This document shows, piece by piece, positions 6,820 to 64,000 of a DNA stretch of 64,000 nt. The notes beneath the pieces are model-generated. The model saw nothing but the letters and a program-made list of their open reading frames with translations, was not told the origin of the DNA and did no database searches. The first letter of the stretch is position 1. Each line of letters starts with the position of its first letter. The position numbers and the translations under genes were made by a program. Source of the DNA: Bacteroidaceae bacterium (GTDB lineage: Bacteria; Bacteroidota; Bacteroidia; Bacteroidales; Bacteroidaceae); contig JAFUAH010000006.1 in NCBI GenBank assembly GCA_017464345.1, forward strand, positions 62,001 through 126,000, in the 5' to 3' direction.

Positions 6820-6845
6820 TTCGTGTTATTGTCATTTCTGCGGAC

Positions 6846-6866: not shown

Positions 6867-6875
6867 ATGGTGTTG

Positions 6876-20918: not shown

Positions 20919-20925
20919 AGATTTT

Positions 20926-20978
20926 TTTTGTTATGCCGTTATTTCGTTATTTCGTTATGCCGTTATTTCGTTTTAGCG
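20926..20978 (-). repeat. 8-nt repeat array (GTTATTTC) in the isomerase-permease gap
   Basis: About five GTTATTTC/GTTATGCC units, running up to the isomerase stop. Same unit as at 19519 and 22413. Confidence 0.8.
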
Positions 20979-22403: not shown

Positions 22404-22412
22404 GATGATTTA

Positions 22413-22472
22413 TTGTTTTTGCGTTATTTCGAAATTTCGATATTTCGGTATTTCGATGTTTCGTTATTCTGC
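22413..22472 (-). repeat. 8-nt repeat array (GATATTTC/GTTATTTC) in the rhaB-isomerase gap
   Basis: About seven units such as GTTATTTC, GAAATTTC, GATATTTC, GGTATTTC and GATGTTTC, ending in the rhaB stop region ('LKIAE'). Confidence 0.8.
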
Positions 22473-33949: not shown

Positions 33950-34024
33950 GCGAAGACCCGAACTTGTTCGAGAACTTCCGAACGGGAACGAGCTCGAACG
34001 TAGTTCAAGGTCGTGATTAAGTGA
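33932..34024 (+). repeat. 57-bp palindromic insert flanked by 18-bp direct repeats
   Basis: AAGGTCGTGATTAAGTGA, which includes the stop codon of the preceding gene, occurs at 33932-33949 and again at 34007-34024. The 57 bp between them contain the interrupted palindrome GAACTtGTTCGAG...CTCGAACgtAGTTC (33960-34006). It looks like a small insertion with duplicated target or a duplication of the gene end. Confidence 0.75.
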
Positions 34025-37791: not shown

Positions 37792-37805
37792 GAAAACCTC
37801 TCCCT

Positions 37806-43968: not shown

Positions 43969-45363
43969 ATGAAAAGATACACCCACTGGTGGCTGCTTGC
44001 CCTGTGCCTGCCACTCTTCATTTCCTCCTGTTCGGATGACGAGGCTGTCGCTCTCCCGAGCGAGAACTGCTACATTTCGTCCTTCACCCTGGGCTCGCTG
44101 CAGCGAACCATCTATGGGCTGACACTGGCCGGTAACGACAGTATCTACACTTCCGTATTCTCCGGCGGAGCTTACCCCATGACCATCGACCAACGTACAG
44201 GACTGATTCAGAACACGGACTCGCTGCCCGTGCGTACTCGCGTGGACCGCGTGCTGACAACCGTCGTCTTCGACGGCGTACTAGCCTGGCGCCGAGCTGA
44301 CATCTCACAGCTGGAGGATACGACGTGGACAACCTACAGCAGTGCGGATTCCCTGGACCTGACCTCCCCTTTGCACTTCCGCGTCTATGCGGCTTCGGGC
44401 AATTCCAGCCGTACATACACGGTGCAGCTGAACGTGCATCAGCAGGACGGCGACAGTACGGTGTGGAACCGCGTGCCCACGGCATCCCCCTTGACGGGAA
44501 TGGGTGCACGCAAGGCTGTGGTTTGGGGCGGACAACTGAACATACTGGCCTTGGATGCCACCGGAGCCCTGTGCTGTGTCAGCCGCCCCTTGGACACCGT
44601 GGGTGACTGGACGACGGACATCGCCACCGGAGCCACACAGGCTGACCCCACCACCCTGCAAGTGCAGGGCGACACGCTATTCCTCAGTACGACAGACGGG
44701 CGGGTGCTCTCCAGTACCGATGCCCGTACATGGGCCACGGCCCCCTATACCACCCGCACCGGGCTGCGTCTGGTGGCTGCCAGCAACAGCCGCCTCTATG
44801 CCCTGGCCGACGGAAAGATGTGGAGCAGTGCCGGAGGCGACTGGACCGAAGAAACCCTGGACAGCGAGCCCGATTGCCTGCCTGTGGATCAGTTGCAGAG
44901 TGTCAGTTACACCTTGCGAAACGGCACACCCCGTGTGCTGCTGGTGGGACGGCGACAGCCGACTGACGACTATGCCACCCTCTGGGCCAAGGCCTGGGAG
45001 GGCGAGGGCGAGACGGCTGCCCCGTGGCAATACTATGTGCCGAACGGGGCGGACAAGTTCCGCTGCCCCATGCTTGAGAATCTCTGCATCCTGCCCTACG
45101 ACGGCGGGCTACAGGCCCTGGGCGGTCGCAGTCGCAACGGCGACTTCGTGGCCATGGCCGACATACTGCACAGTGCAGACCATGGCATCACGTGGAAGAA
45201 ATACGAGGAAGACGATATGAAGGTGGATCCCGACTTGCGGGCTGCTGCCCAGACGGCAGACTATCTGACTGCTGCCGTGGATGCCGATAACTACCTTTGG
45301 GTGGTGGTGGACACGGAGGTATGGCGCGGACGCATCAACCGACTGGGGTTTTTGAAGAACTGA
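43969..45363 (+). CDS. DUF6242 family lipoprotein
   Basis: A protein of 464 residues with a lipoprotein signal ('MKRYTHWWLLALCLPLFISS' and Cys 21). The N-terminal ~150 residues form a beta-rich domain with 'QRTIYGLTLAGNDSIYTSVF' and 'VYAASGNSSRTYTVQLNV'. The rest resembles a beta-propeller with repeated 'WTTY', 'WGGQLNIL', 'LSSTDARTW' and 'HSADHGITWKKYEE' (Asp-box-like) segments. It matches the Bacteroidales DUF6242 architecture; the function is unknown. An upstream ATG at 43948 is possible. It probably heads the cluster DUF6242-DUF6089-uppS-bamA. The stop lies at the edge of an 8-nt repeat array. Confidence 0.82.
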   Translation: MKRYTHWWLLALCLPLFISSCSDDEAVALPSENCYISSFTLGSLQRTIYGLTLAGNDSIYTSVFSGGAYPMTIDQRTGLIQNTDSLPVRTRVDRVLTTVVFDGVLAWRRADISQLEDTTWTTYSSADSLDLTSPLHFRVYAASGNSSRTYTVQLNVHQQDGDSTVWNRVPTASPLTGMGARKAVVWGGQLNILALDATGALCCVSRPLDTVGDWTTDIATGATQADPTTLQVQGDTLFLSTTDGRVLSSTDARTWATAPYTTRTGLRLVAASNSRLYALADGKMWSSAGGDWTEETLDSEPDCLPVDQLQSVSYTLRNGTPRVLLVGRRQPTDDYATLWAKAWEGEGETAAPWQYYVPNGADKFRCPMLENLCILPYDGGLQALGGRSRNGDFVAMADILHSADHGITWKKYEEDDMKVDPDLRAAAQTADYLTAAVDADNYLWVVVDTEVWRGRINRLGFLKN

Positions 45364-45420
45364 AGAGTCGAAGAATTGAAAGATTGAAGAATTGAAAGAT
45401 TGAAGAATTGAAAGATTGAA
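45361..45420 (+). repeat. 8-nt GAAGAATT/GAAAGATT array supplying the DUF6089 start
   Basis: About seven units. The stop TGA of the upstream gene and the TTG start of the next lie in the array. The same unit recurs at 49634-49682. Confidence 0.85.
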
Positions 45421-46138
45421 AAGGCTGACCCTCATACTGGCATGTTTGTTGGCAACCCTGACCCTGGAGGCTCAGGACGATGCCGATGTCTACCAGATGG
45501 AGATGGGCGGGGCACTGGGGCTGGACTTCTATCTGGGCGATGCCAACAAGCGCCCCTTCCGCCACAGCAGTGCCATGGGGGGCTTTATTGTCCGGCGGAT
45601 GTTCAATCCGCGCATGGCCCTCAAGGGCAATCTCACTATGGGGCATCTGCACGGTAACTCCAAGGGCTACTTCGTCCCCACGGATGCTGCCACACCCTCT
45701 CCGACCGGTGGAGTGCCCGTCAGTGTCAAGTTCCGGCGCAACGTCCTCGACCTGGGTGCTCAGTTCGAAATGAACTTCTGGGGCTTCAGCATGGGCGAGG
45801 CCTATAAGGGCAACAGCCGCATCACCCCATACGCCGTGGCTGGCCTGGGGCTGACGCTGGCCATGGGGGGTGGAGGTGGCACGAAGGCCGGACTGAACTG
45901 CCCCATCGGGCTGGGTGTGAAATACAAACTGAAGCGCAGGGTGAACCTTGGGGCCGAATGGACGTTCCGCTTCACCACCACAGATGCACTGGACACCAGT
46001 GGACAATGGAAGCAACTTGGCCACCCCTATGCCATCAAGAGCACGGGCTTCAAGAACAAGGACGCATACTCCTACCTGATGTTCTTCGTCACCTACGAGA
46101 TGATGCCCAAGTGCAAGACCTGCCACAATAACGACTGA
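45416..46138 (+). CDS. DUF6089 family outer-membrane beta-barrel protein
   Basis: A protein of 240 residues with a signal peptide ('[17 protein letters not shown]'). It is followed by '[17 protein letters not shown]' and alternating amphipathic strands ('[18 protein letters not shown]', '[17 protein letters not shown]', '[18 protein letters not shown]') ending '[12 protein letters not shown]'. In Bacteroidales this family sits just before uppS and bamA, as here, and probably forms a small outer-membrane barrel. The only start giving a full signal peptide is TTG at 45416, inside the repeat array. Confidence 0.85.
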
Positions 46139-46984: not shown

Positions 46985-49630
46985 ATGAAACATAAGTATC
47001 TGACATTATTGTTACTCCTCTCCCTGGGGCTGCCCACGATGCTACAAGGGCAAATCCGGGACACGAATCCTGTGGTGGACTATGGTCGCACACCCCGGGA
47101 CTACATCTTGGGAGGCATCACCGTGACGGGGGCACCGAACTACGACGACTTCTTGCTCATCGGCCTCTCGGGCTTGCAGGTGGGCGAGAAGGTGACCATC
47201 CCCGGAGACCAGGTGACCAAAGCCATCCGCCGCTTCTGGCGCAATGGGCTCTTCAGCAGTGTGGCCATCGATGTAGACAGTATCGTGCGCGATTCGGCCT
47301 ACCTCCACATCCGGCTGACACCGCGTCCGCGCATTTCGCAAATTAACTATGCGGGCGTGAAGAAGAGCGAACGCGAGGACCTGGAACAGAAATTGGGACT
47401 GGTGAAGGAGAACCAGATGACACCTAACACCATCGACCGTGCCAAAATACTGGCTAAAAAGTACTTCGATGACAAGGGCTATAAGAATGCCGAAATCACC
47501 ATCATACCCAAGGACGATGCCACGAAGCCCGACCACGTTGTCGTGGACGTGAACATTGTCAAGAAAGATAAGGTGAAGGTGAACCACATCTACATTACCG
47601 GCAACGAAAATCTGCCGGAGAAGAAAATCAAGGGTACCCTCTTTAGCAAGGGTGTGCTGAAGACCATCCACGAACGCAAGAACATGGGCAGCTGGTTCCG
47701 CTCGAAGAAGTTCGTGGATAAAAAGTACAAGGAGGCCAAAGACAATCTGATACAAAAGTATGCTCAGCTGGGCTATCGCGATGCCATCCTGCTCTCGGAC
47801 AGTGTGGTGCCCTTCGATGAACGCAGCGTGGACATCTACCTGAATGTGGAGGAAGGGCAGAAGTATTACATCCGCAATATCGAGTGGGTGGGCAACACGC
47901 TTTACAGCACCGATGCCCTGAGCCACCTGTTGCGCATGAAGAAGGGCGATGTCTACGACCAGAAACTGCTCAACGACCGTCTGTCGGGCGACGAGGATGC
48001 CATCGGTAACCTCTACTATAATAATGGTTATGTCTTCTATCAGCTCGACCCCGTGGAGACAAACATCGTGGGCGATTCGGTGGATCTGGAGATGCGCATT
48101 TTCGAGGGTACGCAGGCCCACATCAGCCACGTACGTATCATAGGTAATGACCGCGTGTACGAGAATGTGGTACGCCGCGAGTTGCGCAACAAGCCCGGCG
48201 ACCTCTTCTCTAAAGAGGCCATGGAGCGTTCCTATCGCGAGATAGCCTCCATGGGATTCTTCGACCCCGAGAGCATCGATCCCAAAGTGGAGCCCAACTA
48301 TGAGAACGGCACCGTGGACATGGCCTGGGGCCTCACCCCCAAGTCGAACGACCAGATAGAATTCTCGCTTGGCTATGGCCAGACGGGTGTCATCGGTAAG
48401 ATAGGTCTGCGCTTCTCCAATTTCTGCATAGCCAACCTGTTTAATAAGAATGCCGTTCGCCGTGGCGTCATGCCCATGGGCAATGGCGAGACCTTCAGTA
48501 TCAGTGGTCAGACTAACGGTCGTTATTATCAACAGTACAGCGTCTCGTATCTGAATCCCTGGTTTGGAGGAAAACGCCCCAATTCGTTCTCCGTCAGTGC
48601 TTTCTTTATGAAGCAGACCGATATCAGCGACAACTATTATAACTCGGCCTTCTTCCGGAACTACACCAGCAGCTACCTCTATGGTGCTGGGTACAACAAT
48701 GGGTACTACAATAACTACTACGAGAACTACTATGATCCGGATAAGTTCATCAAGATGCTGGGCGTGTCCATGGGATGGGGTAAGCGCCTCACCTGGCCAG
48801 ACGATTACTTCCAGTTCATGGCCGAACTGGCCTACACGCGCTATATGCTGAAGGGCTGGGAATACTTTCTCGTCTCCAACGGCAATTGTAACTCTCTGGC
48901 CCTGAATCTCACATTGTCGCGTACCTCCACGGACAACCAGATATTTCCCCGCCGGGGCAGTGAATTCCTGCTTTCGGGCTCTTTCACCCCCCCCTATAGT
49001 CTGTTCGACAACACGGACTATACCAATCTGGCTACCAATCCCAGTTCTGCCACCTATAACCGCGAACTGCAGGACAAATACCGCTGGATAGAGTATCATA
49101 AATGGAAGTTCAAGGCACGCACCTTCACGGCTCTCACCAAGGGCAGTAAGTGCCTGGTGCTGATGACCCGTGTGGAGTTTGGTATCCTGGGTCATTACAA
49201 TAAGCATAAGAAGAGTCCCTTCGAGACCTTCTATGTGGGTGGCGACGGCACCTCGGGCTATAGTTCCAATTATGCTACCGAGACCATAGGCCTACGAGGA
49301 TACGAGAACGGCTCCATCACCAGCATGGGCTATGGTTATGCCTACGACCGCTTCACGCTGGAGTTGCGCTATCCGCTGATGCTTGGCAACTCGGCCAACA
49401 TCTATGCACTGACTTTCCTGGAAGGTGGTAATGCATGGACCAATGTGAAGAAATTCAACCCCCTGGATATGAAACGCAGTGCGGGTCTGGGTGTCCGCAT
49501 CATCCTGCCCATGGTGGGCTTGCTCGGTATCGACTGGGCCTACGGCTTTGACAAGGTCTACGATGCCTCTGCCGGTGCCATGAAGAAGGGAGGCAGCCAG
49601 TTCCACTTCATTTTGGGACAGGAGTTCTGA
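46985..49630 (+). CDS. bamA: Outer-membrane protein assembly factor BamA
   Basis: A protein of 881 residues with a signal peptide ('LLLLLSLGLPTMLQG'). Five POTRA domains follow (e.g. 'GGITVTGAPNYDDFLLIGLS', 'INYAGVKKSEREDLEQKLGL', 'VNHIYITGNENLPEKKIKGT', 'YYIRNIEWVGNTLYSTDALS', 'ISHVRIIGNDRVYENVVRRE'), then a 16-strand barrel with an insertion rich in Tyr and Asn ('YNNGYYNNYYENYYDPDKF'). The last strand ends 'FHFILGQEF' with a terminal Phe, as expected for outer-membrane proteins. It folds barrels into the outer membrane. Three OmpH/Skp genes follow directly. Confidence 0.96.
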   Translation: MKHKYLTLLLLLSLGLPTMLQGQIRDTNPVVDYGRTPRDYILGGITVTGAPNYDDFLLIGLSGLQVGEKVTIPGDQVTKAIRRFWRNGLFSSVAIDVDSIVRDSAYLHIRLTPRPRISQINYAGVKKSEREDLEQKLGLVKENQMTPNTIDRAKILAKKYFDDKGYKNAEITIIPKDDATKPDHVVVDVNIVKKDKVKVNHIYITGNENLPEKKIKGTLFSKGVLKTIHERKNMGSWFRSKKFVDKKYKEAKDNLIQKYAQLGYRDAILLSDSVVPFDERSVDIYLNVEEGQKYYIRNIEWVGNTLYSTDALSHLLRMKKGDVYDQKLLNDRLSGDEDAIGNLYYNNGYVFYQLDPVETNIVGDSVDLEMRIFEGTQAHISHVRIIGNDRVYENVVRRELRNKPGDLFSKEAMERSYREIASMGFFDPESIDPKVEPNYENGTVDMAWGLTPKSNDQIEFSLGYGQTGVIGKIGLRFSNFCIANLFNKNAVRRGVMPMGNGETFSISGQTNGRYYQQYSVSYLNPWFGGKRPNSFSVSAFFMKQTDISDNYYNSAFFRNYTSSYLYGAGYNNGYYNNYYENYYDPDKFIKMLGVSMGWGKRLTWPDDYFQFMAELAYTRYMLKGWEYFLVSNGNCNSLALNLTLSRTSTDNQIFPRRGSEFLLSGSFTPPYSLFDNTDYTNLATNPSSATYNRELQDKYRWIEYHKWKFKARTFTALTKGSKCLVLMTRVEFGILGHYNKHKKSPFETFYVGGDGTSGYSSNYATETIGLRGYENGSITSMGYGYAYDRFTLELRYPLMLGNSANIYALTFLEGGNAWTNVKKFNPLDMKRSAGLGVRIILPMVGLLGIDWAYGFDKVYDASAGAMKKGGSQFHFILGQEF

Positions 49631-49633
49631 TGA

Positions 49634-49682
49634 GAATTGAAAGACTGAAGAATTGAAAGATTGAAGAATTGAAAGATTGAAA
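49634..49682 (+). repeat. 8-nt GAAAGATT/GAAGAATT array between bamA and the first OmpH gene
   Basis: Six units of the same kind as at 45361. They would provide an in-frame TTG start (49677), but the ATG at 49689 is preferred. Confidence 0.85.
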
Positions 49683-49688
49683 AATACT

Positions 49689-50198
49689 ATGAAACGATTT
49701 ATGATTATGCTGATGGTGGCACTGGGTGTCACATCAGCCCAGGCACAGAAGTTTGCCCTCGTAGATATGGAATACATTCTACGTAACATTCCCGCCTACG
49801 AGCGGGCCAGTGAACAACTGAACCAAGTGTCGAAGAAGTGGCAAGCCGAGGTGGATGCCCTGCAGACTGAAGCACAGACTCTGTACAAGAACTATCAGAA
49901 CGAAGCCGTCTTCCTTAGTGAGGAACAGAAGACCAAGCGGGAAGAGACTATCGTAGCCAAGGAGAAGGAAGCAGCAGAACTCAAGAAGAAGTATTTCGGT
50001 CCCGACGGCGAACTGTTCAAGAAGCGCGAAAGCTTGATGACTCCCATTCAGGATGAAATCTACAATGCCGTGAAAGACATTGCCGAGCAGAAAGGCTATG
50101 CTCTGGTACTGGACCGTGCCAGTGATGCTGGTATCATTTTTGCCTCGCCCAAGCACGATATCAGCAACGAGGTGCTGAGCAAACTGGGGTATAATTGA
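49689..50198 (+). CDS. OmpH/Skp-family periplasmic chaperone (1 of 3)
   Basis: A protein of 169 residues with a signal peptide ('MIMLMVALGVTSAQAQKF'). The mature part starts 'ALVDMEYILRNIPAYERASE' and continues as a long charged coiled coil ('WQAEVDALQTEAQTLYKNY', 'REETIVAKEKEAAELKKKY'), ending in a small beta domain 'YALVLDRASDAGIIFASP'. Skp proteins hold unfolded outer-membrane proteins for the Bam complex, in line with the bamA neighbour. Start taken as ATG 49689, since the upstream TTG is repeat DNA. Confidence 0.92.
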   Translation: MKRFMIMLMVALGVTSAQAQKFALVDMEYILRNIPAYERASEQLNQVSKKWQAEVDALQTEAQTLYKNYQNEAVFLSEEQKTKREETIVAKEKEAAELKKKYFGPDGELFKKRESLMTPIQDEIYNAVKDIAEQKGYALVLDRASDAGIIFASPKHDISNEVLSKLGYN

Positions 50199-55608: not shown

Positions 55609-56604
55609 ATGTCCCGTTTCCGGAATATATTCCTCTGGATAGGCGTGGTGGCAGTGGCTGTCATGCTGCTCACGTTCGATATGTCGTGGAAGGAACTCTG
55701 CCACCACGTGCGCCAGTCCGGGGTGTGGCTACCTGCCGCCATACTGCTGTGGCTACCAATATATATAATAAACGCGCGTGCGTGGCAACTCATCGTAAAC
55801 GATGGTGAGACTCGTCCCGTCGGCTTCTGGCGCATCTTTAAGTATACCATTTCCGGTTACGCCCTCAACAGTGTCACCCCTGTGGGACTGCTTGGGGGCG
55901 AACCTTATCGTATCATGGAACTATCGCCCCTCGTGGGGCGGGCCAAAGCGGCCAGCAGTGTCATCCTCTATGCCATGATGCACATCTTCTCCCACTTCTG
56001 TTTTTGGCTCTTCAGCGTCGGCCTCTTCCTGTGTCGCTATGGCCATGCTCTGTCGTGGCCCCTGGCTGCCGTGCTGGGGCTGATACTGCTGTTCTGCCTG
56101 GTCGGAGTCTATGTCTTTCTGGTCAGCTATCGCCATGGGCTTGTCCTGCGACTGTTGAGTTTCCTGGGTCGCTGGCCCCTTGTCGGGGCGTATGTCCGTC
56201 GGCAGGCTGATCGCCATGCCGAGGGCATTCGGGAGGTCGATGAGCAGATAGCCGCCCTCCATGCCCAACGTCGCACCACCTTCTATTGCAGCCTCTCTCT
56301 GGAGTTCGTGGCCCGCATGTTGGGCTGCTTGGAGTTGCAGTTCATCCTCTTTGCCCTCACCCGCGAGGTTTCCTATTGGGACTGTGTGCTCATGCAGGCC
56401 TTCGCCAGTCTCTTTGCCAACCTCTTCTTCTTCATCCCCATGCAGATGGGCACCAAGGAGGGCGGCTTGGCCTTGGTCACTGAGTGCCTGCACATCAGCG
56501 GGGCCTACGGTGTACTGACGGGCTTAGTCACGCGCCTGCGTGAACTCTTCTGGATAGCCGTCGGGCTCCTGCTGATACGGATTGGGAATAAAAGTAAGGC
56601 TTAA
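55609..56604 (+). CDS. UPF0104 / lysylphosphatidylglycerol-synthase-type membrane protein (second copy)
   Basis: A protein of 331 residues with ~8 membrane segments. It begins 'FRNIFLWIGVVAVAVMLL', then 'VGFWRIFKYTISGYALNSVT' and 'PVGLLGGEPYRIMEL' (family 'P-x-x-x-G-E'), ending with 'IPMQMGTKEGGLALV' ('P-x-x-x-G-x-x-E-G') and 'RLRELFWIAVGLLLI'. It belongs to the same broad family as the gene at 28246, but sequence similarity is low, so substrates may differ. ATG 55609 is preferred over an in-frame TTG just after the pdxA stop. Confidence 0.83.
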   Translation: MSRFRNIFLWIGVVAVAVMLLTFDMSWKELCHHVRQSGVWLPAAILLWLPIYIINARAWQLIVNDGETRPVGFWRIFKYTISGYALNSVTPVGLLGGEPYRIMELSPLVGRAKAASSVILYAMMHIFSHFCFWLFSVGLFLCRYGHALSWPLAAVLGLILLFCLVGVYVFLVSYRHGLVLRLLSFLGRWPLVGAYVRRQADRHAEGIREVDEQIAALHAQRRTTFYCSLSLEFVARMLGCLELQFILFALTREVSYWDCVLMQAFASLFANLFFFIPMQMGTKEGGLALVTECLHISGAYGVLTGLVTRLRELFWIAVGLLLIRIGNKSKA

Positions 56605-56627
56605 AAAAGGTATTTTGCCCGCAAGAC

Positions 56628-56662
56628 TCATAATTTTTAATTTTTAATTTTTAATTTTCAAT
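56628..56662 (+). repeat. 7-nt AATTTTT array upstream of tRNA-Ser
   Basis: Four to five AATTTTT units end directly before the tRNA promoter, as at the tRNA-Leu gene. Confidence 0.75.
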
Positions 56663-56671
56663 TAATTGTTG

Positions 56672-56679
56672 TATCTTTG
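56672..56679 (+). promoter_or_regulatory. -7 element of the tRNA-Ser promoter
   Basis: TATCTTTG; the transcript would start near 56686 and include a ~65-nt 5' leader ahead of the tRNA. Confidence 0.6.
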
Positions 56680-56752
56680 CACCGCTTTTGCGGGATACGA
56701 CCTTCCGCAGGAGTATGGAAAGTTATAAGTAAGCCTCTCGCAAGAGAGCATC

Positions 56753-56840
56753 GGAGAGATGGTAGAGTGGTCGATTACACCGGTCTTGAAAACCGGCGTG
56801 CTGAGAGGCACCGGGGGTTCGAATCCCTCTCTCTCCGCCA
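56753..56840 (+). tRNA. tRNA-Ser (anticodon TGA)
   Basis: It begins GGAGAGATGGTAGAGTGGTC, has the anticodon arm CCGGT-CTTGAAA-ACCGG with anticodon TGA, a long variable arm, the T arm GGGGGTTCGAATCCC and the 3' end TCTCTCCG plus encoded CCA. The acceptor stem is fully paired. Confidence 0.96.
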
Positions 56841-56842
56841 GG

Positions 56843-56882
56843 GAACAAGGAACCCGCTGATTCTTCAGCGGGTTCCTTGTTC
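56843..56882 (+). terminator. Terminator after tRNA-Ser
   Basis: An 18-bp perfect stem GAACAAGGAACCCGCTGA/TCAGCGGGTTCCTTGTTC with a TTCT loop. Confidence 0.9.
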
Positions 56883-57041
56883 TTTATGATTGTCCGCCTG
56901 TCGTCCCTGCAGGCGTTTCATGTGCTGTTGAAAAATATTGACATGAATGCCATCCTTCCGTCGGGCCCGTCCGTGGTGTCTTCACCAAAGGCGAGACCTC
57001 GCTTGTTTTTTTGTGTTTTATGGCCTAAAAATGATAAATTC
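56883..57041. other. Non-coding gap before the fimbrial operon
   Basis: No gene is recognised. A short GCGAG/CTCGC hairpin followed by a T run (56992-57010, plus strand) looks like a weak terminator, perhaps ending a small RNA; nothing else is visible. Confidence 0.4.
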
Positions 57042-57073
57042 TTTGCATAATTGACTAAATAGTCGTAATTTTG
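57042..57073 (+). promoter_or_regulatory. Promoter of the fimbrial operon
   Basis: TTTG at 57042-57045 and TAATTTTG at 57066-57073, spaced by 20 bp, a good match to the Bacteroidetes -33/-7 consensus. No comparable promoter is seen closer to the fimbrillin gene, so this one probably drives all three plus-strand genes. Confidence 0.65.
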
Positions 57074-57135
57074 CATCGCTGATACAAACTGGGATAATCT
57101 GGCCTGCAGAAATGGAGGCAGGATTTGAATGAGAT

Positions 57136-58812
57136 GTGAAGCGTCTATTAGGTGTCATATTACTAACGCTACTCACCCTCGGACTGAGGGCTGCAGTGGC
57201 AGATTCGTTGACGGCCAGTGAAGTGCGGCTGATTCATGATGCTGATTCAGTGCAACTGAGGCTGCAACTGCATCTCCCCGACCGGCGTTCCATCGGGAAG
57301 AAAGACCTCGTATTGGTCTACCCGCGCTTGGTCAATGGTGCAGACAGTCTGGACTTGCCTTCAGTAGGCGTGTATGGACGCATACCATGGTTGTTCGCTG
57401 TGCGCAGTGGGATATTCCTATTCCAGGGAACGTCCGACGTTGCGCTCCGCTCCAGTAAAATAGGGCGGGAGGGTGTGTGTGCCTACAGTCGCAACGTGGC
57501 CTATGAATCCTGGATGGAGGGAGCCGAAGTGAAGCTTGTCTCTGTCCGTTTGACTTGTTGTGGCGATGTCGCCGACACCCGTTCCTATCGCATCCTCCGC
57601 CGGCAGGAGGTCACTTATCCCCCCTACACCGTCTACCACACGCGCACGGCCACGGCCACAGGCACGTCGCACGTGGATTTTATAGTGAACCGCATAGAGC
57701 TTCGCCGAGACTATCATGACAACTGGCGCGAACTGGACCAGATCAGTCGTCTCATCGACTCCATACAGCAGTTGCCCAACAGCCATATCGACACCATCGC
57801 CCTGCATGGCTACGCTTCGCCCGAAGGCCCCTGGCGGCGCAACGTCTATCTGGCCCGCAATCGTGTCCGCGCACTGGCCCGCTATTTGGCCGACTTCCAC
57901 CAGTTGGATCCCTCCATCATCTCCCTCCGCTCCACACCTGAGGACTGGGCGGGCCTGCGGCGTTTTGTGGAGCAGTCCTCTCTGCCCCATCGCGACGAGA
58001 TGCTGCGCGTCATCGGCGACACCATAGCCGAACCAGACCCCGACCGTCGCCTGAACATCCTCAAGCAGCAGTACCCCGACGACTACCAGGTCATCTGGGC
58101 TCAGAGCCTGCCCTACCTTCGCCACACCGACTACACCATACATTATACGCTGGCGGACAGCGTGCCCGAGACTGTTCCCGGGCGCACCGAGGCCCAGTTG
58201 CCCCAGGTGGAGGCCCAGCCCATCACGCCGGCAGAGCAGTTCCCGCCCCTGCGCCCGCTCTTTGCTGTCAAGACCAATCTTCTGCTGGACGCTGCCCTGT
58301 GGCCCAACGTCGAGGCCGAAGTTCCCTTTGGGCGCAATGCCAACTGGAGTGTCATGGCCGAGTGGGGCAGTCCTTGGTATGTCTGGCATCACAACTCACG
58401 CGCTTATCAGATACTCAATGTCGGGTTGGAGGTACGCCGCTGGCTTGGTCGTTGCTATCCCTGCCGTCCCGTCCTCTCGGGGGGCTTTGTCGGGCTCTAT
58501 GCCGCAGCTGGCAAGTACGACCTGGAGTGGGACTCCAACGGCAAGCAGGGCGAATACTTCTCCGCTGGCATCTCCGGTGGCTATAGTTGGCCCGTGCGTC
58601 CCTGTCTCAACATCGAGTTTTCCGGCTCCGTGGGCATTCTCTTCGGTCCCCAGCGCCACTACCATGGCGAGTTCCAGGACACCCACCTCATCTGGAAGCA
58701 CTTCGATGGACTGATATACGGTGGTCCCACCCAGCTCAAGGTCTCACTCGTATGGCTCCTGCCCCGCAAGTGGTTCGGGCTCGACCGGAAAGGAGGTGTC
58801 GTATGGTACTAA
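57136..58812 (+). CDS. DUF3868/OmpA-like/DUF3575 fimbrial-operon outer-membrane protein
   Basis: A protein of 558 residues with a signal peptide ('LLGVILLTLLTLGLRAAVA'). The N-terminal domain (~20-150) resembles DUF3868 ('RLQLHLPDRRSIGKKDLVLV'). Residues ~188-275 resemble an OmpA peptidoglycan-binding domain ('IELRRDYHDNW', 'ALHGYASPEGPWRRNVYLAR', 'NRVRALARYLAD'). Residues ~375-558 form a DUF3575 barrel-like domain ('FAVKTNLLLDAALWPNVEAE', ending 'LLPRKWFGLDRKGGVVWY'). Such proteins are found in Bacteroidales FimA/Mfa1-type fimbrial operons and may anchor or regulate the fimbria. Start is GTG (57136); the nearest ATG is out of frame. The stop overlaps the next gene. Confidence 0.85.
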   Translation: MKRLLGVILLTLLTLGLRAAVADSLTASEVRLIHDADSVQLRLQLHLPDRRSIGKKDLVLVYPRLVNGADSLDLPSVGVYGRIPWLFAVRSGIFLFQGTSDVALRSSKIGREGVCAYSRNVAYESWMEGAEVKLVSVRLTCCGDVADTRSYRILRRQEVTYPPYTVYHTRTATATGTSHVDFIVNRIELRRDYHDNWRELDQISRLIDSIQQLPNSHIDTIALHGYASPEGPWRRNVYLARNRVRALARYLADFHQLDPSIISLRSTPEDWAGLRRFVEQSSLPHRDEMLRVIGDTIAEPDPDRRLNILKQQYPDDYQVIWAQSLPYLRHTDYTIHYTLADSVPETVPGRTEAQLPQVEAQPITPAEQFPPLRPLFAVKTNLLLDAALWPNVEAEVPFGRNANWSVMAEWGSPWYVWHHNSRAYQILNVGLEVRRWLGRCYPCRPVLSGGFVGLYAAAGKYDLEWDSNGKQGEYFSAGISGGYSWPVRPCLNIEFSGSVGILFGPQRHYHGEFQDTHLIWKHFDGLIYGGPTQLKVSLVWLLPRKWFGLDRKGGVVWY

Positions 58813-59927
58813 GGCGCATGAAGGGTATGGGGATTGTAGGTCTTATGGGACTTATAGGACTTATGGGTCCTATGGGGCTGATAGGGCTGTTGCTTGGCAG
58901 CTGCGACCGCCGTCCGCTGGAGGTCTATTACATGGATCAGGCCCGCATCGTCCTGCATGTCGATTGGATGAGCCAGTTCGGCTACCATCCCAATGCCATG
59001 ACCGTCCACCTCTATGATGACACGGGCCGTCTCTGCCGCAGCTTCTCCACCAACGACGTCGATTCCGTACCCCTCTCCCTCTCCGTCGGGCGCTACCGTA
59101 TGATAGTCTTCAACGGCGACCTTGACATCTTCACCAGCTTTGGCTTCGAGGATGTCGCCGACTTCGACCTCTTCCGCACCGTGGCCCGCGAGAACACGCG
59201 CTACCGTGTGCGCCTCTGGGACCGTGCCTCACGCTACACTTGGGAACCCGACGAAGTGCTGGGCTGCGCAGTCGATTCCTTTGAGGTCACCGAGGATATG
59301 CTCGACCGCCAGCTAAAGTTCGTCAGCTACCACCAGCGCAACGATGCACACGGCCAGACCGCCATCTATCGTCTGGACGAGGTGGTCCACCCCTTGCAGA
59401 CCATGATACACGTGCGTGTCCATGTCAATGGCTTGCAGAACATGTACGGACTGGAAGCCAGCCTCGACGGCATGGCCGATGGCTGCTCCATGGCCCAGAC
59501 CTGGCGCAATACCACCGACTGCAGTGTGCTCTACCAGAAGTGGGGCTTCTACTTCGACAGCGACGTCTCGCCCCACGGATGGGTGGACCTGGACATTGCC
59601 ACCTGGGGCGAGCCCCACGGCAAGGAACTGCCGGAATGGCGCGACAGCACCGACAATGTCCTGCGCATGAACTTCACCCTGCGCAATGATACCACCCTCT
59701 ACTTCGAGTTCAACGTCGGTCACCTCATCGAGTACCGCGACCCACAGCGCGACCCGGCACGGCTGACACCGCCCGACGTACTGCGCCACCTCTATCTGGA
59801 GATAAACCGCGAAATACCCCTTCTGCCCGACGTGCTGCCAGACCCTGATAAGGAAACCGGCGCAGGCTTCGATGCCTACGTCGATCCCTGGGACTACGGT
59901 GGCGAGGTGGATTTGGGAACATTCTGA
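58803..59927 (+). CDS. FimB/Mfa2-type (DUF5119-like) fimbrial anchor lipoprotein
   Basis: A protein of 374 residues. The lipoprotein signal is built from a 9-nt DNA repeat giving a three-residue repeat 'GLMGLIGLMGPMGLIGLLLG' ending at the lipobox Cys ('LLLGSC'). The mature part starts 'DRRPLEVYYMDQARIVLHVD' and has 'MTVHLYDDTGRLCRSFSTND' and 'VGRYRMIVFNGDLD', the beta-sandwich pattern of FimB/Mfa2/DUF5119 proteins. Such lipoproteins anchor the fimbria and limit its length. ATG 58803 overlaps the preceding stop by 10 bp; 58818 is an alternative. It lies between the OmpA-like gene and fimbrillin. Confidence 0.8.
   Translation: MVLRRMKGMGIVGLMGLIGLMGPMGLIGLLLGSCDRRPLEVYYMDQARIVLHVDWMSQFGYHPNAMTVHLYDDTGRLCRSFSTNDVDSVPLSLSVGRYRMIVFNGDLDIFTSFGFEDVADFDLFRTVARENTRYRVRLWDRASRYTWEPDEVLGCAVDSFEVTEDMLDRQLKFVSYHQRNDAHGQTAIYRLDEVVHPLQTMIHVRVHVNGLQNMYGLEASLDGMADGCSMAQTWRNTTDCSVLYQKWGFYFDSDVSPHGWVDLDIATWGEPHGKELPEWRDSTDNVLRMNFTLRNDTTLYFEFNVGHLIEYRDPQRDPARLTPPDVLRHLYLEINREIPLLPDVLPDPDKETGAGFDAYVDPWDYGGEVDLGTF
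58829..58884 (+). repeat. 9-nt repeat array encoding the lipoprotein signal peptide
   Basis: Six 9-nt units TAGGTCTTA, TGGGACTTA, TAGGACTTA, TGGGTCCTA, TGGGGCTGA, TAGGGCTG, in frame, encode six G-[LP]-[MIL] triplets that make up the hydrophobic core of the signal peptide. Confidence 0.9.
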
Positions 59928-60129
59928 AAATGAGAAAATGAGAGAATGAGAAATACCAAACCTAATAGACAAACAAATAAAGAGAGAAAAAGAAAGATTA
60001 TTCATTAAAAAGATATTACGACGAACCAGACAGTAACACAATGCACAGCGGCGTACTACGCGTATGTCCAATCCCCAAACAGAAAACCAACAACTCACAA
60101 AATTATCATTAATTAAAAACAAAAACAAA
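59928..60129 (+). promoter_or_regulatory. Leader between anchor and fimbrillin genes
   Basis: About 200 bp. It starts with three 8-nt units of GAGAAAAT type (59930-59953), then AT-rich sequence with 'AATTATCATTAATTAAAAAC' just before the ATG. No TAnnTTTG element is found, so fimbrillin is probably transcribed from the operon promoter; this is the fixed, outside flank of the invertible segment. Confidence 0.5.
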
Positions 60130-61644
60130 ATGAAAAAATCGCAATTTATCGCAGTTGCCGCCGCCCTCGTGGCCATGGCCAGCTGCACGACGAGTGACGA
60201 AGTCTTCGAGGGCCTGAACCTCGCAGAGCAAGCCACCCAGGAGAATGCCATCAACTTTGGCACGTATATGGGTGAAAGTAAACAAACACGTGCAGGAACC
60301 CAAGGACTTATTACCACAGACCAGCTGAAAACTGGAACTCATGCAGCTGATGGCTTTGGTGTATTCGCGTATTACACAGGGAGTGACACTTATCAAGATG
60401 CAACTTCTTATGCTGTCAAGACTGATGGCTCAACAGGTCAATCAGCATTAGCACCGAACTTTATGTATAATCAGCAAGTAAAATGGAATTCGAGTCTGAC
60501 GGGTTATATCTCTCAATGGGAGTATACTCCGCTAAAATACTGGCCAAACGAAGTTCAGAATGGTGCTGTTGATGACCAAACTAGTCCTGCTGCAACTACG
60601 ACAAATGGGAATGGTGGACATCTCTCCTTCTTTGCCTATGCTCCGTATGTGTCTTCAGCTTCTGGTTCTGAGGGTATTACGGTTATGACGGCCAATTCGG
60701 ATGAAAGTGATCCCATTCTTACTTACGTGGTACCGGCTAGTGGTGCTAATGCAGTCGATCTCTTATGGGGTACTCTTGGTAGTGCTAGCGAAAATGTGGT
60801 GGGTGGTGCAAACAGTGGCGTTGCTTATTTGGCAGATGGAACCAATTACCAGCAATCCATTTTGCCCTCATACACTATGAACGCCGACCTGACGAAGCAG
60901 AAGACCGATGGAAAGGTTGATTTCGCATTTAAACATGCGCTTGCAAAAGTGGGTGGTAGCGGTACTGGTATGCAAATAGTTCTAGATTTGGATGACCAAA
61001 AAGGGGCATTAACTGGCGGAACTAAAGCGGATGGCACTAAGGTTACCGTCAAGAGCATCACGATTGCAGCCAAAGCTAAATCCGCAGTAAGTGGAACTGA
61101 TGTATATTATCAGACAAATATGACGGGAAACTTCAATTTGGCTACAGGTCGTTGGGGCATTACCAGCTCTACGGGTACTGCTGCCAGCGCGGCAACCACG
61201 ACCTACGTTATCAATCAAAGTGGCACAGGTACTAATGTCGCAGGAACACTGACTACAAGTATTGCAGAACCAGCTTCTGCACCTGCAAAGACAGAAGACG
61301 GTTTTGATGGTTTGCCTGTTGGTGTACTTGCTTCTTCTGCTACAAATGTGTTTTCCGCAGAAGCCGCTCCGCTTGTATTTATCCCTGGTAGTTATCCAGA
61401 GTTGACCGTTACGGTGGATTATATCGTGAGAACCTTGGATACAAATCTGGCAAACAAATATTCTGAAGTGGAACAAGCCATCACGAGAACTATAACTTTT
61501 GGTAGTGCTGTAGAATTGAACAAGAGATATAGTCTTGTCATCCACCTTGGCCTGACTAGTGTGAAATTCGATGCTTCTGTTAGCGATTGGGATGAAGATG
61601 GTGGTTCGGCAACGACCATTTACCTCCCAATTAACGTAGATTAA
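60130..61644 (+). CDS. Fimbrillin-family (Mfa1/FimA-like) major pilin, expressed copy
   Basis: A protein of 504 residues. A lipoprotein signal 'FIAVAAALVAMASC' (Cys 19) is followed by a propeptide and 'SKQTRAGTQG' with Arg54, the probable cleavage site of an Arg-specific protease (FimA of Porphyromonas is cut similarly at Arg46). The mature part has the fimbrillin pattern 'WEYTPLKYWPN', 'LSFFAYAPYV', 'VDFAFKHALAKV' and ends 'SLVIHLGLTSVKFDASVSDW' and 'TIYLPINVD', with the C-terminal strand used in polymerisation. The first 137 bp after the start are identical to the silent copy on the other strand; after this the DNA becomes AT-rich. It follows the OmpA-like and anchor genes. Confidence 0.9.
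   Translation: MKKSQFIAVAAALVAMASCTTSDEVFEGLNLAEQATQENAINFGTYMGESKQTRAGTQGLITTDQLKTGTHAADGFGVFAYYTGSDTYQDATSYAVKTDGSTGQSALAPNFMYNQQVKWNSSLTGYISQWEYTPLKYWPNEVQNGAVDDQTSPAATTTNGNGGHLSFFAYAPYVSSASGSEGITVMTANSDESDPILTYVVPASGANAVDLLWGTLGSASENVVGGANSGVAYLADGTNYQQSILPSYTMNADLTKQKTDGKVDFAFKHALAKVGGSGTGMQIVLDLDDQKGALTGGTKADGTKVTVKSITIAAKAKSAVSGTDVYYQTNMTGNFNLATGRWGITSSTGTAASAATTTYVINQSGTGTNVAGTLTTSIAEPASAPAKTEDGFDGLPVGVLASSATNVFSAEAAPLVFIPGSYPELTVTVDYIVRTLDTNLANKYSEVEQAITRTITFGSAVELNKRYSLVIHLGLTSVKFDASVSDWDEDGGSATTIYLPINVD
60134..60270 (+). repeat. 137-bp perfect inverted repeat, left copy
   Basis: Positions 60134-60270 are identical, base for base, to the reverse complement of 63182-63318. The repeat covers codons 2-47 of the expressed fimbrillin (signal peptide and most of the propeptide) but not the start codon. 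Confidence 0.97.
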
Positions 61645-61661
61645 TTCAGTCATAAACTATA

Positions 61662-61700
61662 TTAAAAGAGCCGAACCCCATCGGGGCCCGGCTCTTTTAA
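61662..61700. terminator. Bidirectional terminator between the two fimbrillin frames
   Basis: TTAAAAGAGCCG ... CGGCTCTTTTAA enclosing CCCC-ATC-GGGG. It lies at the centre of the invertible segment, 18 bp after one stop and 21 bp from the other, so either orientation would have a terminator. Confidence 0.9.
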
Positions 61701-61720
61701 TAGTTTAGATGAATATCGGA

Positions 61721-63316
61721 TTATTGAACGTTGATGGGGAGGTAAACATTTTGCTGATCTTCAGCATCAATCGTTTCATTATTATTATTGTCATAAGGTT
61801 CCCAGTTGCTCACAGTAGCAGTGAACTTCACGCTAGTTAAGCCCAAGTGAATAAGCAAATTGTACTGCTTGTTAAGCTGTACCTTGTTTGCGAAATTGAT
61901 AGTTTTCTTCACTGTCTGGGACACATTGGAATATTTGTCAGCAAGATTTGCATCCTTGGTGCGAACAACGTAGGTTATCTCCACTTCCAGTTCAGGGAAT
62001 GTACCGGGGATGAAGACCAAGGGGTTAGCTTCGTTTTGATAAACATTTTTTGCAGTAGTAGTCTGCACGCCAGCAGGCAGTCCATTCCAGCCCGCTTCTG
62101 TGGTGGCAGGTGCTGTGGTGGGTTCTGCTATTGTAGTATTTAACTGACAATCTGGAGCACTCCCTGCCGTAGTGATGTTGTGGGTCATTTCAGCCTTGCC
62201 CGTGCCGTCTGTGATGTTTGTTGCTGTAGCAACATCTATCGTCCACTGACCTGTGGCCAAGTCAAGTACACCTTGGTTGCCTGCTTCTGTCAGATACTTA
62301 TCGGCAGTGGCATCGCCATTTGTATCCACCTTAGAACGAGCCTTGATGTTGATGGCAGAAACCGTCACTTTGGTTTCAGCATTATTGTACGTGCCACCCG
62401 ATTCGGAGCCATCTGCATTGTCTACATCGAGGATTATCTGTAAACCGCTGCCTGTAAAGCTGCCGCTTTCAGAGCCGCCAACCTTAGCCAGTGCATGCTT
62501 AAATGCAAATTCAACCTTGCCTTCCGTCTTCATTTTGGTGAGATTGGCATTCACCTTGAAAGGACGGTCTGCCCACTCCGTCGAACCTGTCGGATTCAAG
62601 GCAATATAGTCACCAGGCTGTCCCACAGACCCTGTTTGAGCCTTATAACCATTCGTTCCTGCAGTACCCCAAAGCAGATCAACAACGGCCCCCGTCGATG
62701 GCATCTTGTAGGTAATGGTTGGGTTACCTTCAGCGTTTGCTGCAGACATCGCCGTGATACCTGTTGACCCTACAGTTTCCACATAAGGAGCGTATGCAAA
62801 GAAACTAACCTTGCCACCTACAGAACCTTCGGCAGCCGGACTCTGGTCGTCTGCAGTGCTATTGCCGTTAGGCCAGTACTTGACAGGGGTATAACTCCAC
62901 GCTGGAGTAGCGTCATCCGTACCCACAATACGCTGGTTGTACATAAAATTAGGCTTTGTGGCACTTGCCTGATCTGATGTAAGGTCGGTGGTAGGAGTTC
63001 CAGAGAGGGCTGTAGATGGAGTCTTACCACTTGCAACAGTTCCTAAATAATCCTTTTCCACGGTGTAATGAGCGAATACGCCAAAGCCCCGCTTCTGTGC
63101 CAGGGCTTGAGCTGAGGTGATAGAACCTGTGACACCGCCATTGACAGCATCAGCTATTGCGCGTGTCTGCTGGCTGCCACTCATATACGTGCCAAAGTTG
63201 ATGGCATTCTCCTGGGTGGCTTGCTCTGCGAGGTTCAGGCCCTCGAAGACTTCGTCACTCGTCGTGCAGCTGGCCATGGCCACGAGGGCGGCGGCAACTG
63301 CGATAAATTGCGATTT
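61721..63316 (-). CDS. Silent fimbrillin cassette without start codon
   Basis: An open frame of 531 codons on the minus strand, beginning 'KSQFIAVAAALVAMASC' and identical to the expressed fimbrillin through codon 47, then diverging ('SGSQQTRAIADAV...'). It has the same fimbrillin pattern ('WSYTPVKYWPN', 'SFFAYAPYV', 'EFAFKHALAKV', C-terminal 'LLIHLGLTSVKFTATVSNWE' and 'VYLPINVQ'). It has no ATG, GTG or TTG at its head: the codons just upstream of AAA-TCG are TAA TAA. It also lacks a promoter. An internal GTG would lose the signal peptide. It is therefore a storage copy, activated by inversion. Confidence 0.88.
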   Translation of the reverse strand, partial: KSQFIAVAAALVAMASCTTSDEVFEGLNLAEQATQENAINFGTYMSGSQQTRAIADAVNGGVTGSITSAQALAQKRGFGVFAHYTVEKDYLGTVASGKTPSTALSGTPTTDLTSDQASATKPNFMYNQRIVGTDDATPAWSYTPVKYWPNGNSTADDQSPAAEGSVGGKVSFFAYAPYVETVGSTGITAMSAANAEGNPTITYKMPSTGAVVDLLWGTAGTNGYKAQTGSVGQPGDYIALNPTGSTEWADRPFKVNANLTKMKTEGKVEFAFKHALAKVGGSESGSFTGSGLQIILDVDNADGSESGGTYNNAETKVTVSAINIKARSKVDTNGDATADKYLTEAGNQGVLDLATGQWTIDVATATNITDGTGKAEMTHNITTAGSAPDCQLNTTIAEPTTAPATTEAGWNGLPAGVQTTTAKNVYQNEANPLVFIPGTFPELEVEITYVVRTKDANLADKYSNVSQTVKKTINFANKVQLNKQYNLLIHLGLTSVKFTATVSNWEPYDNNNNETIDAEDQQNVYLPINVQ

Positions 63317-63318
63317 TT
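63182..63318 (-). repeat. 137-bp perfect inverted repeat, right copy
   Basis: Reverse complement of 60134-60270 with no mismatch. It begins right after two TAA codons on the minus strand and ends one base before the sequences diverge (ATG-G versus ATG-A). Confidence 0.97.
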
Positions 63319-63459
63319 ATTATTCTAATTTCTGGATTAAATTATTCTAATTATGCTAATTTCTTTCCTAACACGAATTGCCATGAATTAGACACAAATT
63401 ATTCACGAATTTTTATTATTCATGTTAGTGGATAAATCACTATTTTGCGGAGTGGATGC
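63319..63459. other. AT-rich spacer between the silent cassette and the recombinase
   Basis: 141 bp of AT-rich sequence with degenerate 'AATTATTCT', 'AATTTCTGG', 'AATTATGCT' units (63318-63362) and 'CACGAATTGCCATGAATTAG' to 'CACAAATTATTCACGAATTT' (63368-63410). No gene is visible; it may hold recombinase-binding sites or remnants of further cassettes. Confidence 0.5.
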
Positions 63460-64000
63460 TCAACTGATGAATTTCCGATGCGACAGTTTGACATTGTTCT
63501 GGCTCACCATGGCGTAGTGTAGCGTCGTGTCTATCTTAGTGTGGCCCAAAAGGCGTTGCACCTGTTCGATGGGCATCCCCTTGTCGATGGCCATCGTGGC
63601 CATGGTGCGACGGAATTTATGGGGGTGCACTTTGCCAATGTTGGCCCGCCGTCCCAGTTGGCGCAGACGGAGTTCTATCGCACTGATGCTCAGACGGGAA
63701 TGGGGATGGGCCAACGTCACAAAAAGCGCAGGGCATACATCGGTCCGCTGGTCTAGATAACGAAGCAGGTGTATTTTTGTGCGAGCATTAAAATACACCT
63801 GACGCTCTTTGTCTCCCTTTCCGAAGACCACACATTGGCGTTCATGGAAATCGATGTCCGAACGATTCAGTTTCACCAATTCCCCCACACGCATTCCAGT
63901 AGATGCCAGTAGGTCAATAAGGGCAACGTCGCGCAATTCCGTGCAACTGTCACGAAGGCGTTCCAATTGCTCGTCGCTTATCACCTCACGGACTTGTTTC
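63460..64000 (-). CDS. Tyrosine recombinase, C-terminal catalytic part (cut by window edge)
   Basis: About 180 residues are visible; the frame is open through the right edge. All catalytic residues of the XerC/XerD-type family are present: Arg in 'LLASTGMRVGELVKLN', Lys in 'VFGKGDKERQVYF', 'HPHKFRRTMATMAI' (HxxR), 'VQRLLGHTKIDTTL' and the nucleophile Tyr in 'LHYAMVSQNNV'. The core-binding N-terminal domain lies outside. It is transcribed toward the silent fimbrillin cassette and ends 141 bp from the inverted repeat, which makes it the prime candidate for the invertase. It could also be an integrase of a mobile element beyond the edge. Confidence 0.9.
   Translation of the reverse strand, partial: KQVREVISDEQLERLRDSCTELRDVALIDLLASTGMRVGELVKLNRSDIDFHERQCVVFGKGDKERQVYFNARTKIHLLRYLDQRTDVCPALFVTLAHPHSRLSISAIELRLRQLGRRANIGKVHPHKFRRTMATMAIDKGMPIEQVQRLLGHTKIDTTLHYAMVSQNNVKLSHRKFIS

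What the first reader, a model, noticed from the sequence alone, without database searches (positions are those of the whole stretch)
60130..64000. Invertible fimbrillin locus: one expressed pilin, one silent cassette, perfect 137-bp inverted repeat, adjacent tyrosine recombinase
The two fimbrillin frames face each other and share an exact 137-bp inverted repeat (60134-60270, 63182-63318). The right copy has no start codon. Crossing over inside the repeat inverts 2.9 kb and puts the other pilin body, in frame, behind the single start codon and operon promoter. A tyrosine recombinase with all catalytic residues lies 141 bp outside. Invertible surface genes with local recombinases are known in Bacteroides, but I know of no description of pilin-body exchange of this layout.
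Basis: partly seen in the sequence, partly recalled or inferred. Interest (0 to 1): 0.95.

Follow-up and report, generated by a model that had tools for sequence, protein, structure and literature searches.

The report
Pilin body-swapping invertible DNA switch
This bacterium carries two different pilus-protein genes facing each other, only one of which has a start codon for the full protein, and the recombinase gene beside them, of a kind otherwise found next to DNA-restriction genes, would likely flip the DNA between them and so change which pilus protein the cell makes.

Summary
Two facing type V pilin genes (49% identical) share an exact 137-bp inverted repeat (60134-60270 / 63182-63318). 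The right copy has a stop codon directly before the repeat and no start codon for a full leader. A complete tyrosine recombinase ends 141 bp outside.

New here: this recombinase family otherwise sits beside hsdS (restriction-specificity) genes. All 10 other loci found with it carry 1-4 copies of a 14-bp core, TAAATNNNAATTTA (26 seen, 0.17 expected). A 13-bp form, AAATCGCAATTTA, stands at the outer edge of both pilin arms, in the same codon phase, and nowhere else in the window. A crossover there would put the other body behind the one ATG and exchange the whole mature pilin.

Among homologous pilins, leader and body are unlinked: 106 of 6,697 pairs with bodies at most 55% identical share leaders at least 90% identical; no body window does. 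A second inverted pilin pair was found in another genome, without the core.

No inverted state was seen directly; one database protein hints at it. Pilin inversion is known in Moraxella and hsdS inversion widely; the combination was not found in the searches made. New variant of a known kind.

The parts
57042..57073 (+). Bacteroides-type promoter-like sequence (TTTG-N20-TAATTTTG) before the pilus operon
   Evidence: Pattern match, (consensus recalled); 7 matches in the 64-kb window, the only plus-strand one in 56500-64000; none inside the invertible segment
57136..58812 (+). First gene of the pilus operon (DUF3575, OmpA-like)
   Evidence: PF12099 E 4.7e-24; the same gene order stands before a pilin in L130
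58587..59927 (+). Likely anchor pilin gene (DUF5119); true start probably 58818, where a lipoprotein-like signal begins
   Evidence: ORF; PF17145 E 1.8e-21 on 58701-59924; start read; role as anchor inferred from gene order
60130..61644 (+). Pilin gene in the expressed slot (504 aa)
60134..60270 (+). Left arm of the exact 137-bp inverted repeat (codon 2 to the propeptide)
60136..60148 (+). Left copy of the likely recombination core AAATCGCAATTTA
   Evidence: one of only two matches in 64 kb
61660..61702 (.). Stem-loop with flanking A and T runs between the two convergent genes (likely shared terminator)
   Evidence: pair I7; sequence
61721..63316 (-). Silent pilin cassette without start codon for a full leader (530 aa readable from 63313)
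63182..63318 (-). Right arm of the exact 137-bp inverted repeat
63304..63316 (-). Right copy of the likely recombination core AAATCGCAATTTA
63317..63319 (-). Stop codon TAA directly before the silent cassette
63460..64000 (-). Tyrosine recombinase of the hsdS-associated family (continues to about 64623 outside the window)
   Evidence: PF00589 E 1.4e-32; full ORF; relatives

Best explanation
The 3.2-kb segment between two inverted copies of a 13-bp sequence, one at the start of each of two facing pilin genes, is likely flipped by the tyrosine recombinase encoded next to it, which would place either of the two pilin bodies behind the single start codon. Shown by sequence: the two frames, the exact repeat, the single start codon for a full leader, the intact recombinase, the matching reading phase of the core in both arms, and the same core (but for one base) in each of the 10 other loci found with this recombinase family. 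Inferred: that the recombinase acts on this core, that inversion happens in the cell, and that both products are assembled. The crossover would fall at codons 3-7, so the expression site supplies the promoter and the first codons, and each cassette supplies signal peptide, lipobox, propeptide and mature pilin. The shared leader ends at the expected arginine processing site (QTR/A), so the mature stalk pilin would be exchanged whole while export and processing signals stay the same. The recombinase and its core appear to have been taken over from a type I restriction system, where relatives flank hsdS segments with the same core.
For: Exact 137-bp inverted repeat between frames of 49% identity. 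Core AAATCGCAATTTA in both arms, same codon phase; only two matches to AAATNNNAATTTA in 64 kb against 0.03 expected, and 1.1e-3 expected per arm under a local AT-rich model. Independent definition of the core: in 5 of 6 hsdS regions (bounds set by me) the longest string repeated at least four times (three in L143) on both strands is, or in L141 contains, TAAATNNNAATTTA. It occurs in 10 of 10 other recombinase loci, 26 copies against 0.17 expected. The central triplet is the same within 8 of the 9 loci with two or more copies and takes four forms among those eight, as expected for a crossover region. HsdS-like ORF within 1.5 kb in 9 of these 10 loci, and about 2.5 kb away in the tenth, whose recombinase is broken into two frames. 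In a 61-sequence tree the window's recombinase lies inside the group that holds all sampled hsdS-neighbouring and HsdS-fused ones; of the eight nodes on its path six have support 0.88-0.99 and two 0.57 and 0.38. Silent body intact and predicted to fold as a type V pilin. Protein database: of the 164 pilin homologues listed by two searches (best 120 each), only the two window bodies start at the lipobox methionine. The right body does so on this contig, where it is silent (P0001); the left body is recorded so on three contigs, as I read the table, the longest 171,666 bp and thus not this one (P0035), as expected if it lies in the silent slot there. Second case of facing pilin bodies with a 141-bp exact inverted repeat: L077.
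Against: No read or contig showing the inverted junction was seen; P0035 is indirect, since a gene caller can pick an internal start for other reasons and the contig itself could not be fetched. The pilin core has A where all 26 other copies have T at the first position. A 17-bp weight matrix from hsdS sites ranked two other window positions (60114 minus, 63431 plus) above the left pilin core and a third (38062 plus) above the right one; the best score inside the 137-bp arm proper, where that 17-mer is cut off, was reached by 85 of 5,000 or 374 of 5,000 random sequences. L006 gave no core in the de novo test, and its locus's two copies differ in the triplet (L136). An exact copy of the 13-mer also lies in this genome at C13:10121 beside an intergenic repeat like the one flanking the right arm, so the right arm's core could have come with that repeat. 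The nearest tree neighbours are mostly unfused proteins of unknown gene context (8 of 11). Most relatives with similar pilins show neither the repeat nor this recombinase. L077 lacks the core, and its genome has no close relative of the recombinase (best E 2.2e-18).
Confidence: 0.75

Rival explanations
1. The repeat inverts, but by general homologous recombination or another recombinase-independent route across 137 bp, and the neighbouring recombinase is a bystander.
For: 137 bp of exact identity is long. In pneumococcal spnIII, switching is only partly controlled by the local recombinase and goes on without it and without RecA (passages of PMC6620402).
Against: The recombinase family's core, but for one base, stands at the edge of both arms, and the recombinase is intact beside them. 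At E 1e-40 it is absent from 148 of the 149 other genomes searched as relatives, so its place here is not a genus-wide background.
Confidence: 0.12
2. The locus is a frozen duplication: a second pilin gene with a copied leader, kept identical by gene conversion or recent duplication, that no longer or never inverts. The silent copy is a decaying or donor gene.
For: Only one orientation is in the assembly. Leader sharing is common in the family and may arise without inversion; tandem same-strand pilins occur in relatives.
Against: The silent body is an intact 530-aa frame with a predicted pilin fold. The repeat begins two bases before the core and at no gene boundary. P0035 fits the opposite orientation.
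Confidence: 0.1
3. The recombinase flips its own gene or mobilises the AATTCGTG-type repeats around it, and the pilin repeat is unrelated.
For: The recombinase lies inside a second inverted repeat (L003 5313-5456 against 6720-6941; 113 nt at 96%), with a core-like sequence in its arms (63431).
Against: These arms are members of a dispersed intergenic repeat and, by my reading, differ from the family core at two positions, whereas the pilin arms differ at one. The pilin repeat is exact over 137 bp.
Confidence: 0.08

Closest known systems
Moraxella bovis / M. lacunata pilin inversion (Marrs 1988, 1990; piv)
   Same: A site-specific inversion system switches between two pilin genes (passages of PMC4073114 and PMC5903667; finer layout recalled)
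   Different: Type IV pilins and Piv, an IS110-type recombinase (both recalled); here type V pilins of Bacteroidota, a tyrosine recombinase and another core
hsdS-inverting type I restriction loci with a local tyrosine recombinase (pneumococcal cod/spnIII with PsrA/CreX; Bacteroidales loci found here)
   Same: Tyrosine recombinase beside coding segments flanked by short inverted cores; the pneumococcal IR1 is 15 bp and PsrA acts on it together with its upstream sequence (abstract and passages of PMC7096588). The window's recombinase groups with the Bacteroidales hsdS-associated ones and shares their core but for one base
   Different: The target is a pilin, not hsdS, and the crossover point would be in the first codons
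Bacteroides surface-protein and SusCD inversions (Tsr recombinases; [quoted passage not shown]
   Same: Bacteroidota, tyrosine recombinases, surface products, larger segments moved into an expression locus (passages of PMC12632263)
   Different: In the passages seen, fimbrillin appears as a gene near promoter-bearing invertons (PMC11892184), not as an exchanged body
Mycoplasma Vpma lipoprotein switching (XerC recombinase)
   Same: Site-specific inversions activate one of several lipoprotein genes by promoter addition (passages of PMC11868660)
   Different: Other phylum and other protein family; no pilus
R64 PilV shufflon (recalled)
   Same: Tyrosine recombinase exchanges pilin segments at short repeats
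   Different: There the C-terminal tip segment varies behind a constant body; here the constant part is the N-terminal leader and the whole mature protein varies

Membership tests
Type V pilin (FimA/Mfa1-like) of Bacteroidota | Lipoprotein signal with lipobox cysteine and arginine processing site | tested here: met
   C19 and R54 invariant in 18 aligned sequences, the two window bodies included; in 73 sequences C19 invariant, R54 nearly so; cleavage itself not tested
Type V pilin (FimA/Mfa1-like) of Bacteroidota | Type V pilin fold | tested here: met
Type V pilin (FimA/Mfa1-like) of Bacteroidota | Fimbrillin family model (PF13149) | tested here: inconclusive
   8 of 18 members of A1 match; the two window bodies do not
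Type V pilin (FimA/Mfa1-like) of Bacteroidota | Assembly into a pilus | not testable with these tools
   No experiment
hsdS-associated tyrosine recombinase family of Bacteroidales | Sequence kinship and catalytic residues | tested here: met
   61-67% identity over matched parts to the 7 other hits of the order search; inside the family in the tree; R, K, HxxR, H, Y present
hsdS-associated tyrosine recombinase family of Bacteroidales | Core TAAATNNNAATTTA in inverted copies beside the gene | tested here: inconclusive
   13-bp form AAATCGCAATTTA in both pilin arms; the outermost base is A where the 26 family copies have T
hsdS-associated tyrosine recombinase family of Bacteroidales | HsdS gene next to the recombinase | tested here: not met
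   Neighbours are the pilin cassette and a giant protein, and no HsdS-like frame was found in L003; 10 of 10 other loci have one within 3 kb
Moraxella-type pilin inversion system | Two pilin genes between inverted repeats, one with the expression signals | tested here: met
   inversion itself not observed
Moraxella-type pilin inversion system | Piv-type recombinase | tested here: not met
   PF00589 tyrosine recombinase
Invertible-promoter switch (fim, capsule loci) | Promoter inside the invertible segment | tested here: not met
   No match to TTTG-N17..22-TAnnTTTG or the looser TTG form on either strand of 60130-63330; other promoter types were not sought

The most novel reading that the evidence does not exclude
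A restriction-specificity shuffling recombinase, carrying its 14-bp site with it, has been re-used to shuffle pilins. The window is one instance of a wider body-exchange system in which Bacteroidales stalk pilins are interchangeable cassettes behind shared leaders, so that one pilus operon can show several antigenically different stalks, and the same recombinase may serve other coding modules wherever its core is planted.
Probability: 0.4. Interest if true: 0.85.

Novelty: new variant of a known kind. Interest (0 to 1): 0.72.

Why it matters
If true, type V pili of Bacteroidota would have a switch of the stalk protein itself, not only of its promoter or its tip. It would also show how a recombinase of a defence system can be re-used: a short core placed in the first codons of a gene is enough to make the rest of the gene a cassette. 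The core TAAATNNNAATTTA gives a search string for further targets of this recombinase family, and the unlinking of leader and body among the homologues turns pilin diversity in these bacteria into a testable recombination question.

Tried and rejected
P0035 is the only trace, and it rests on my reading of the contig columns of the protein table.

Relatives: 139 genus genomes gave 18 with a pilin match at E 1e-20, the window's own included; 399 family genomes gave 9 at E 1e-60, the own included. Of 56 loci scanned for repeats of at least 50 bp and 85% (12 from own and genus genomes, 44 from named genomes, several of them the same stretch as one another), only the window's locus and L077 join two pilin frames by an inverted repeat. 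L072 with L130 looked at first like a branch point inside the leader, because two contigs of one genome share a 55-mer in the signal peptide; since C15 runs on into one body without a break, I do not count it.

L077: the repeat has no signal peptide in the pilin frame and no core, and its genome has no close relative of the recombinase. It is a second inverted pilin pair but not the same switch. G343 has both a close relative of the recombinase and two pilins, but its pilins are in tandem on one strand and its recombinase sits beside an HsdS-like frame on another contig.

The leader/body test used 124 of 164 listed homologues (those with a recognisable lipobox and FGT-R border; 40 dropped), and the pair counts leave out the two window bodies: 122 sequences, 7,381 pairs. 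A first count on 126 of 164 gave 270 pairs with leader at least 85% identical, 211 of them with body below 60%.

The 17-bp weight-matrix test did not rank the pilin cores first; it is told under evidence against. I replaced it by exact counts of the 13- and 14-bp cores. In the 55 fetched pilin loci that do not hold this recombinase the 14-mer has 0 matches and the 13-mer 3 in 970 kb.

Both are on inversions that alter genes, by their titles, and may list pilin cases; I saw only their titles in reference lists. The statement that the combination was not found rests on the search listings and passages of seven papers.

Full report
WHAT IS THERE. The window is bases 62001-126000 of contig C27 (191,104 bp) of a draft genome of 1.9 Mb, 61% complete. 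The host is thus probably a Prevotella-type Bacteroidales; its own name and source are not given. At the right end of the window stands a pilus operon: a DUF3575/OmpA-like gene, a DUF5119 gene that is likely the anchor pilin, and a stalk-pilin gene at 60130-61644. An operon of like order precedes a homologous pilin in another genome (L130 with L072; read from the translations). After the pilin follow a stem-loop (61660-61702), a second pilin frame on the other strand (63316 down to 61721) and, 141 bp beyond its repeat, a tyrosine recombinase gene that the window cuts but the contig holds in full.

THE RECOMBINASE. It is a PF00589 protein that aligns to XerC-like, XerA and XerD structures with the catalytic residues in place (residue roles recalled). 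It is rare: one of 149 other genomes searched as relatives has a match at E 1e-40, 7 of 392 others in the order at E 1e-90, one new genome with two loci in the class search, and G343 among seven genomes tested by handle. Of these 10 other loci, 9 have an HsdS-like frame within 1.5 kb; the tenth (G869), whose recombinase is broken into two frames, has one about 2.5 kb away. Of the 120 best database proteins, the window's own included, 77 carry an HsdS-like part in the same protein (my own profile, E 1e-5; the search scored only the 7,998 candidates that share most words). In a tree of 61 sequences (18 of the 77 fused and 22 of the 42 other listed homologues drawn at random, 9 of the 10 loci, 11 distant recombinases) the window's protein lies inside the group of hsdS-associated ones, with none of the distant recombinases on its path of eight nodes; six nodes have support 0.88-0.99, two only 0.57 and 0.38, and its closest clade of 12 holds 3 fused and 8 unfused proteins of unknown context. 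The window's locus is the only one of the 11 with a pilin beside the recombinase.

THE SITE. Comparing the pilin repeat with repeats in six hsdS loci, the best match fell on the same bases of the pilin arm in four of them (L140-L143). Taken from the hsdS regions alone, the longest string that recurs on both strands is or contains TAAATNNNAATTTA in 5 of 6 (L006 gave none). It is present in all 10 other recombinase loci, 26 copies against 0.17 expected. The three central bases are the same within 8 of the 9 loci that have two or more copies and take four forms among these eight, as a strand-exchange region should. The copies lie in different coding contexts and in both directions, so protein conservation alone does not explain them. 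The pilin arms carry AAATCGCAATTTA at 60136-60148 and 63304-63316, two bases in from the outer edge of the repeat. These are the only matches to AAATNNNAATTTA in the window (0.03 expected). The core lies in the same codon phase in both arms, so exchange there keeps the frame. The pilin form departs from the family core in its first base. A wider weight matrix gave a less clear result, which is told under evidence against. The same 13-mer occurs once more in the genome, at C13:10121, beside an intergenic repeat.

IS THE FLIP SEEN? Not directly. The protein database offers one trace. The silent right body is recorded from its lipobox methionine (P0001, on this contig). The left body is recorded with the same kind of start on three contigs, as I read the table, the longest 171,666 bp, so not on this contig (P0035). 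Breaking this contig at either arm would give pieces of about 122-125 or 66-69 kb, so that contig is not simply a broken copy. Among the 164 listed homologues no other protein starts there (144 have a full leader, 3 a short signal, 15 no lipobox near the start). This is what the inverted arrangement predicts, but other reasons for an internal start cannot be excluded.

A WIDER PATTERN. Among 122 homologues, 6,697 of 7,381 pairs have bodies at most 55% identical. Of these, 106 pairs share leaders at least 90% identical and 35 at least 95%; none of nine body windows reaches 90% in any such pair, although the mean leader identity (0.46) is below that of three body windows (0.52, 0.56, 0.58). 33 of the 122 proteins take part at the 95% level. 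Leaders and bodies are thus re-assorted among these proteins, by inversion or by conversion between paralogues; the test does not tell which. A second inverted pilin pair, L077 (Prevotella sp. RGIG3761, roe deer), fills a 3,506-bp contig whose two ends are a 141-bp exact inverted repeat. It lacks the core and the signal peptide, so it is kin in layout only.

WHAT IT WORKS LIKE, AND WHAT IT IS. It works like the Moraxella pilin switch, in which inversion switches between two pilin genes (passages). By descent the recombinase is not Piv but groups with hsdS-associated tyrosine recombinases, and the core agrees with theirs but for one base. In the pneumococcal hsdS locus a 15-bp repeat with its upstream sequence is the target of the local tyrosine recombinase (passages of PMC7096588), which makes a 13-14-bp core plausible. 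Switching there also goes on without the local recombinase and without RecA (passages of PMC6620402), which keeps the recombinase-independent rival alive.

JUDGEMENT. I rate it a new variant of a known kind: pilin inversion and hsdS inversion are both known; a type V pilin exchanged by an hsdS-type recombinase was not found in the searches listed under Tried and rejected. Two papers on gene-altering inversions could not be read.

Noticed in passing
L003 5313-5456 and 6720-6941 (window 63313-63456 and beyond): The recombinase gene lies inside a second inverted repeat (113 nt at 96%) made of AATTCGTG-type intergenic repeats with core-like ends; the repeats are dispersed in the genome (C13, C20, C8, C7).
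   Followed up: partly
G000:C13:9919-10133 (L059 5919-6133): A copy of that intergenic repeat ends on an exact AAATCGCAATTTA, the same 13-mer as in the pilin arms, between a Fic-like and an AraC-like gene (names by my reading of the translations).
   Followed up: partly
G000:C13:5980 and 6783 (L059 1980, 2783): A RhuM-like frame (name by my reading) lies between two direct copies of AAATCGGAATTTA, the exact core form seen in one hsdS locus (L141); possibly a trace of a former site-flanked cassette.
   Followed up: partly
L077 1-3506 (JAFTFC010000137.1): A whole contig made of two facing pilin bodies with a 141-bp exact terminal inverted repeat; the repeat has no signal peptide in frame.
   Followed up: partly
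P0167, P0169, P0170 and others: HsdS and recombinase in one reading frame are common among the recombinase's homologues (77 of the 120 listed).
   Followed up: partly
L003 7161-18998: A giant, probably secreted protein (over 3,946 aa, with repeated modules) follows the recombinase on the plus strand with its own promoter-like sequence at 7022.
   Followed up: no
window 31226-33950 and 35029-37792: Two neighbouring copies of a long stretch, about 3.8 kb apart, about 75-84% alike in the matched pieces.
   Followed up: no
window 19491-19620, 20902-20983, 22395-22484, 45340-45438, 49617-49699: Runs of degenerate 8-bp units (TTTCGATA- and AAGATTGA-like).
   Followed up: no
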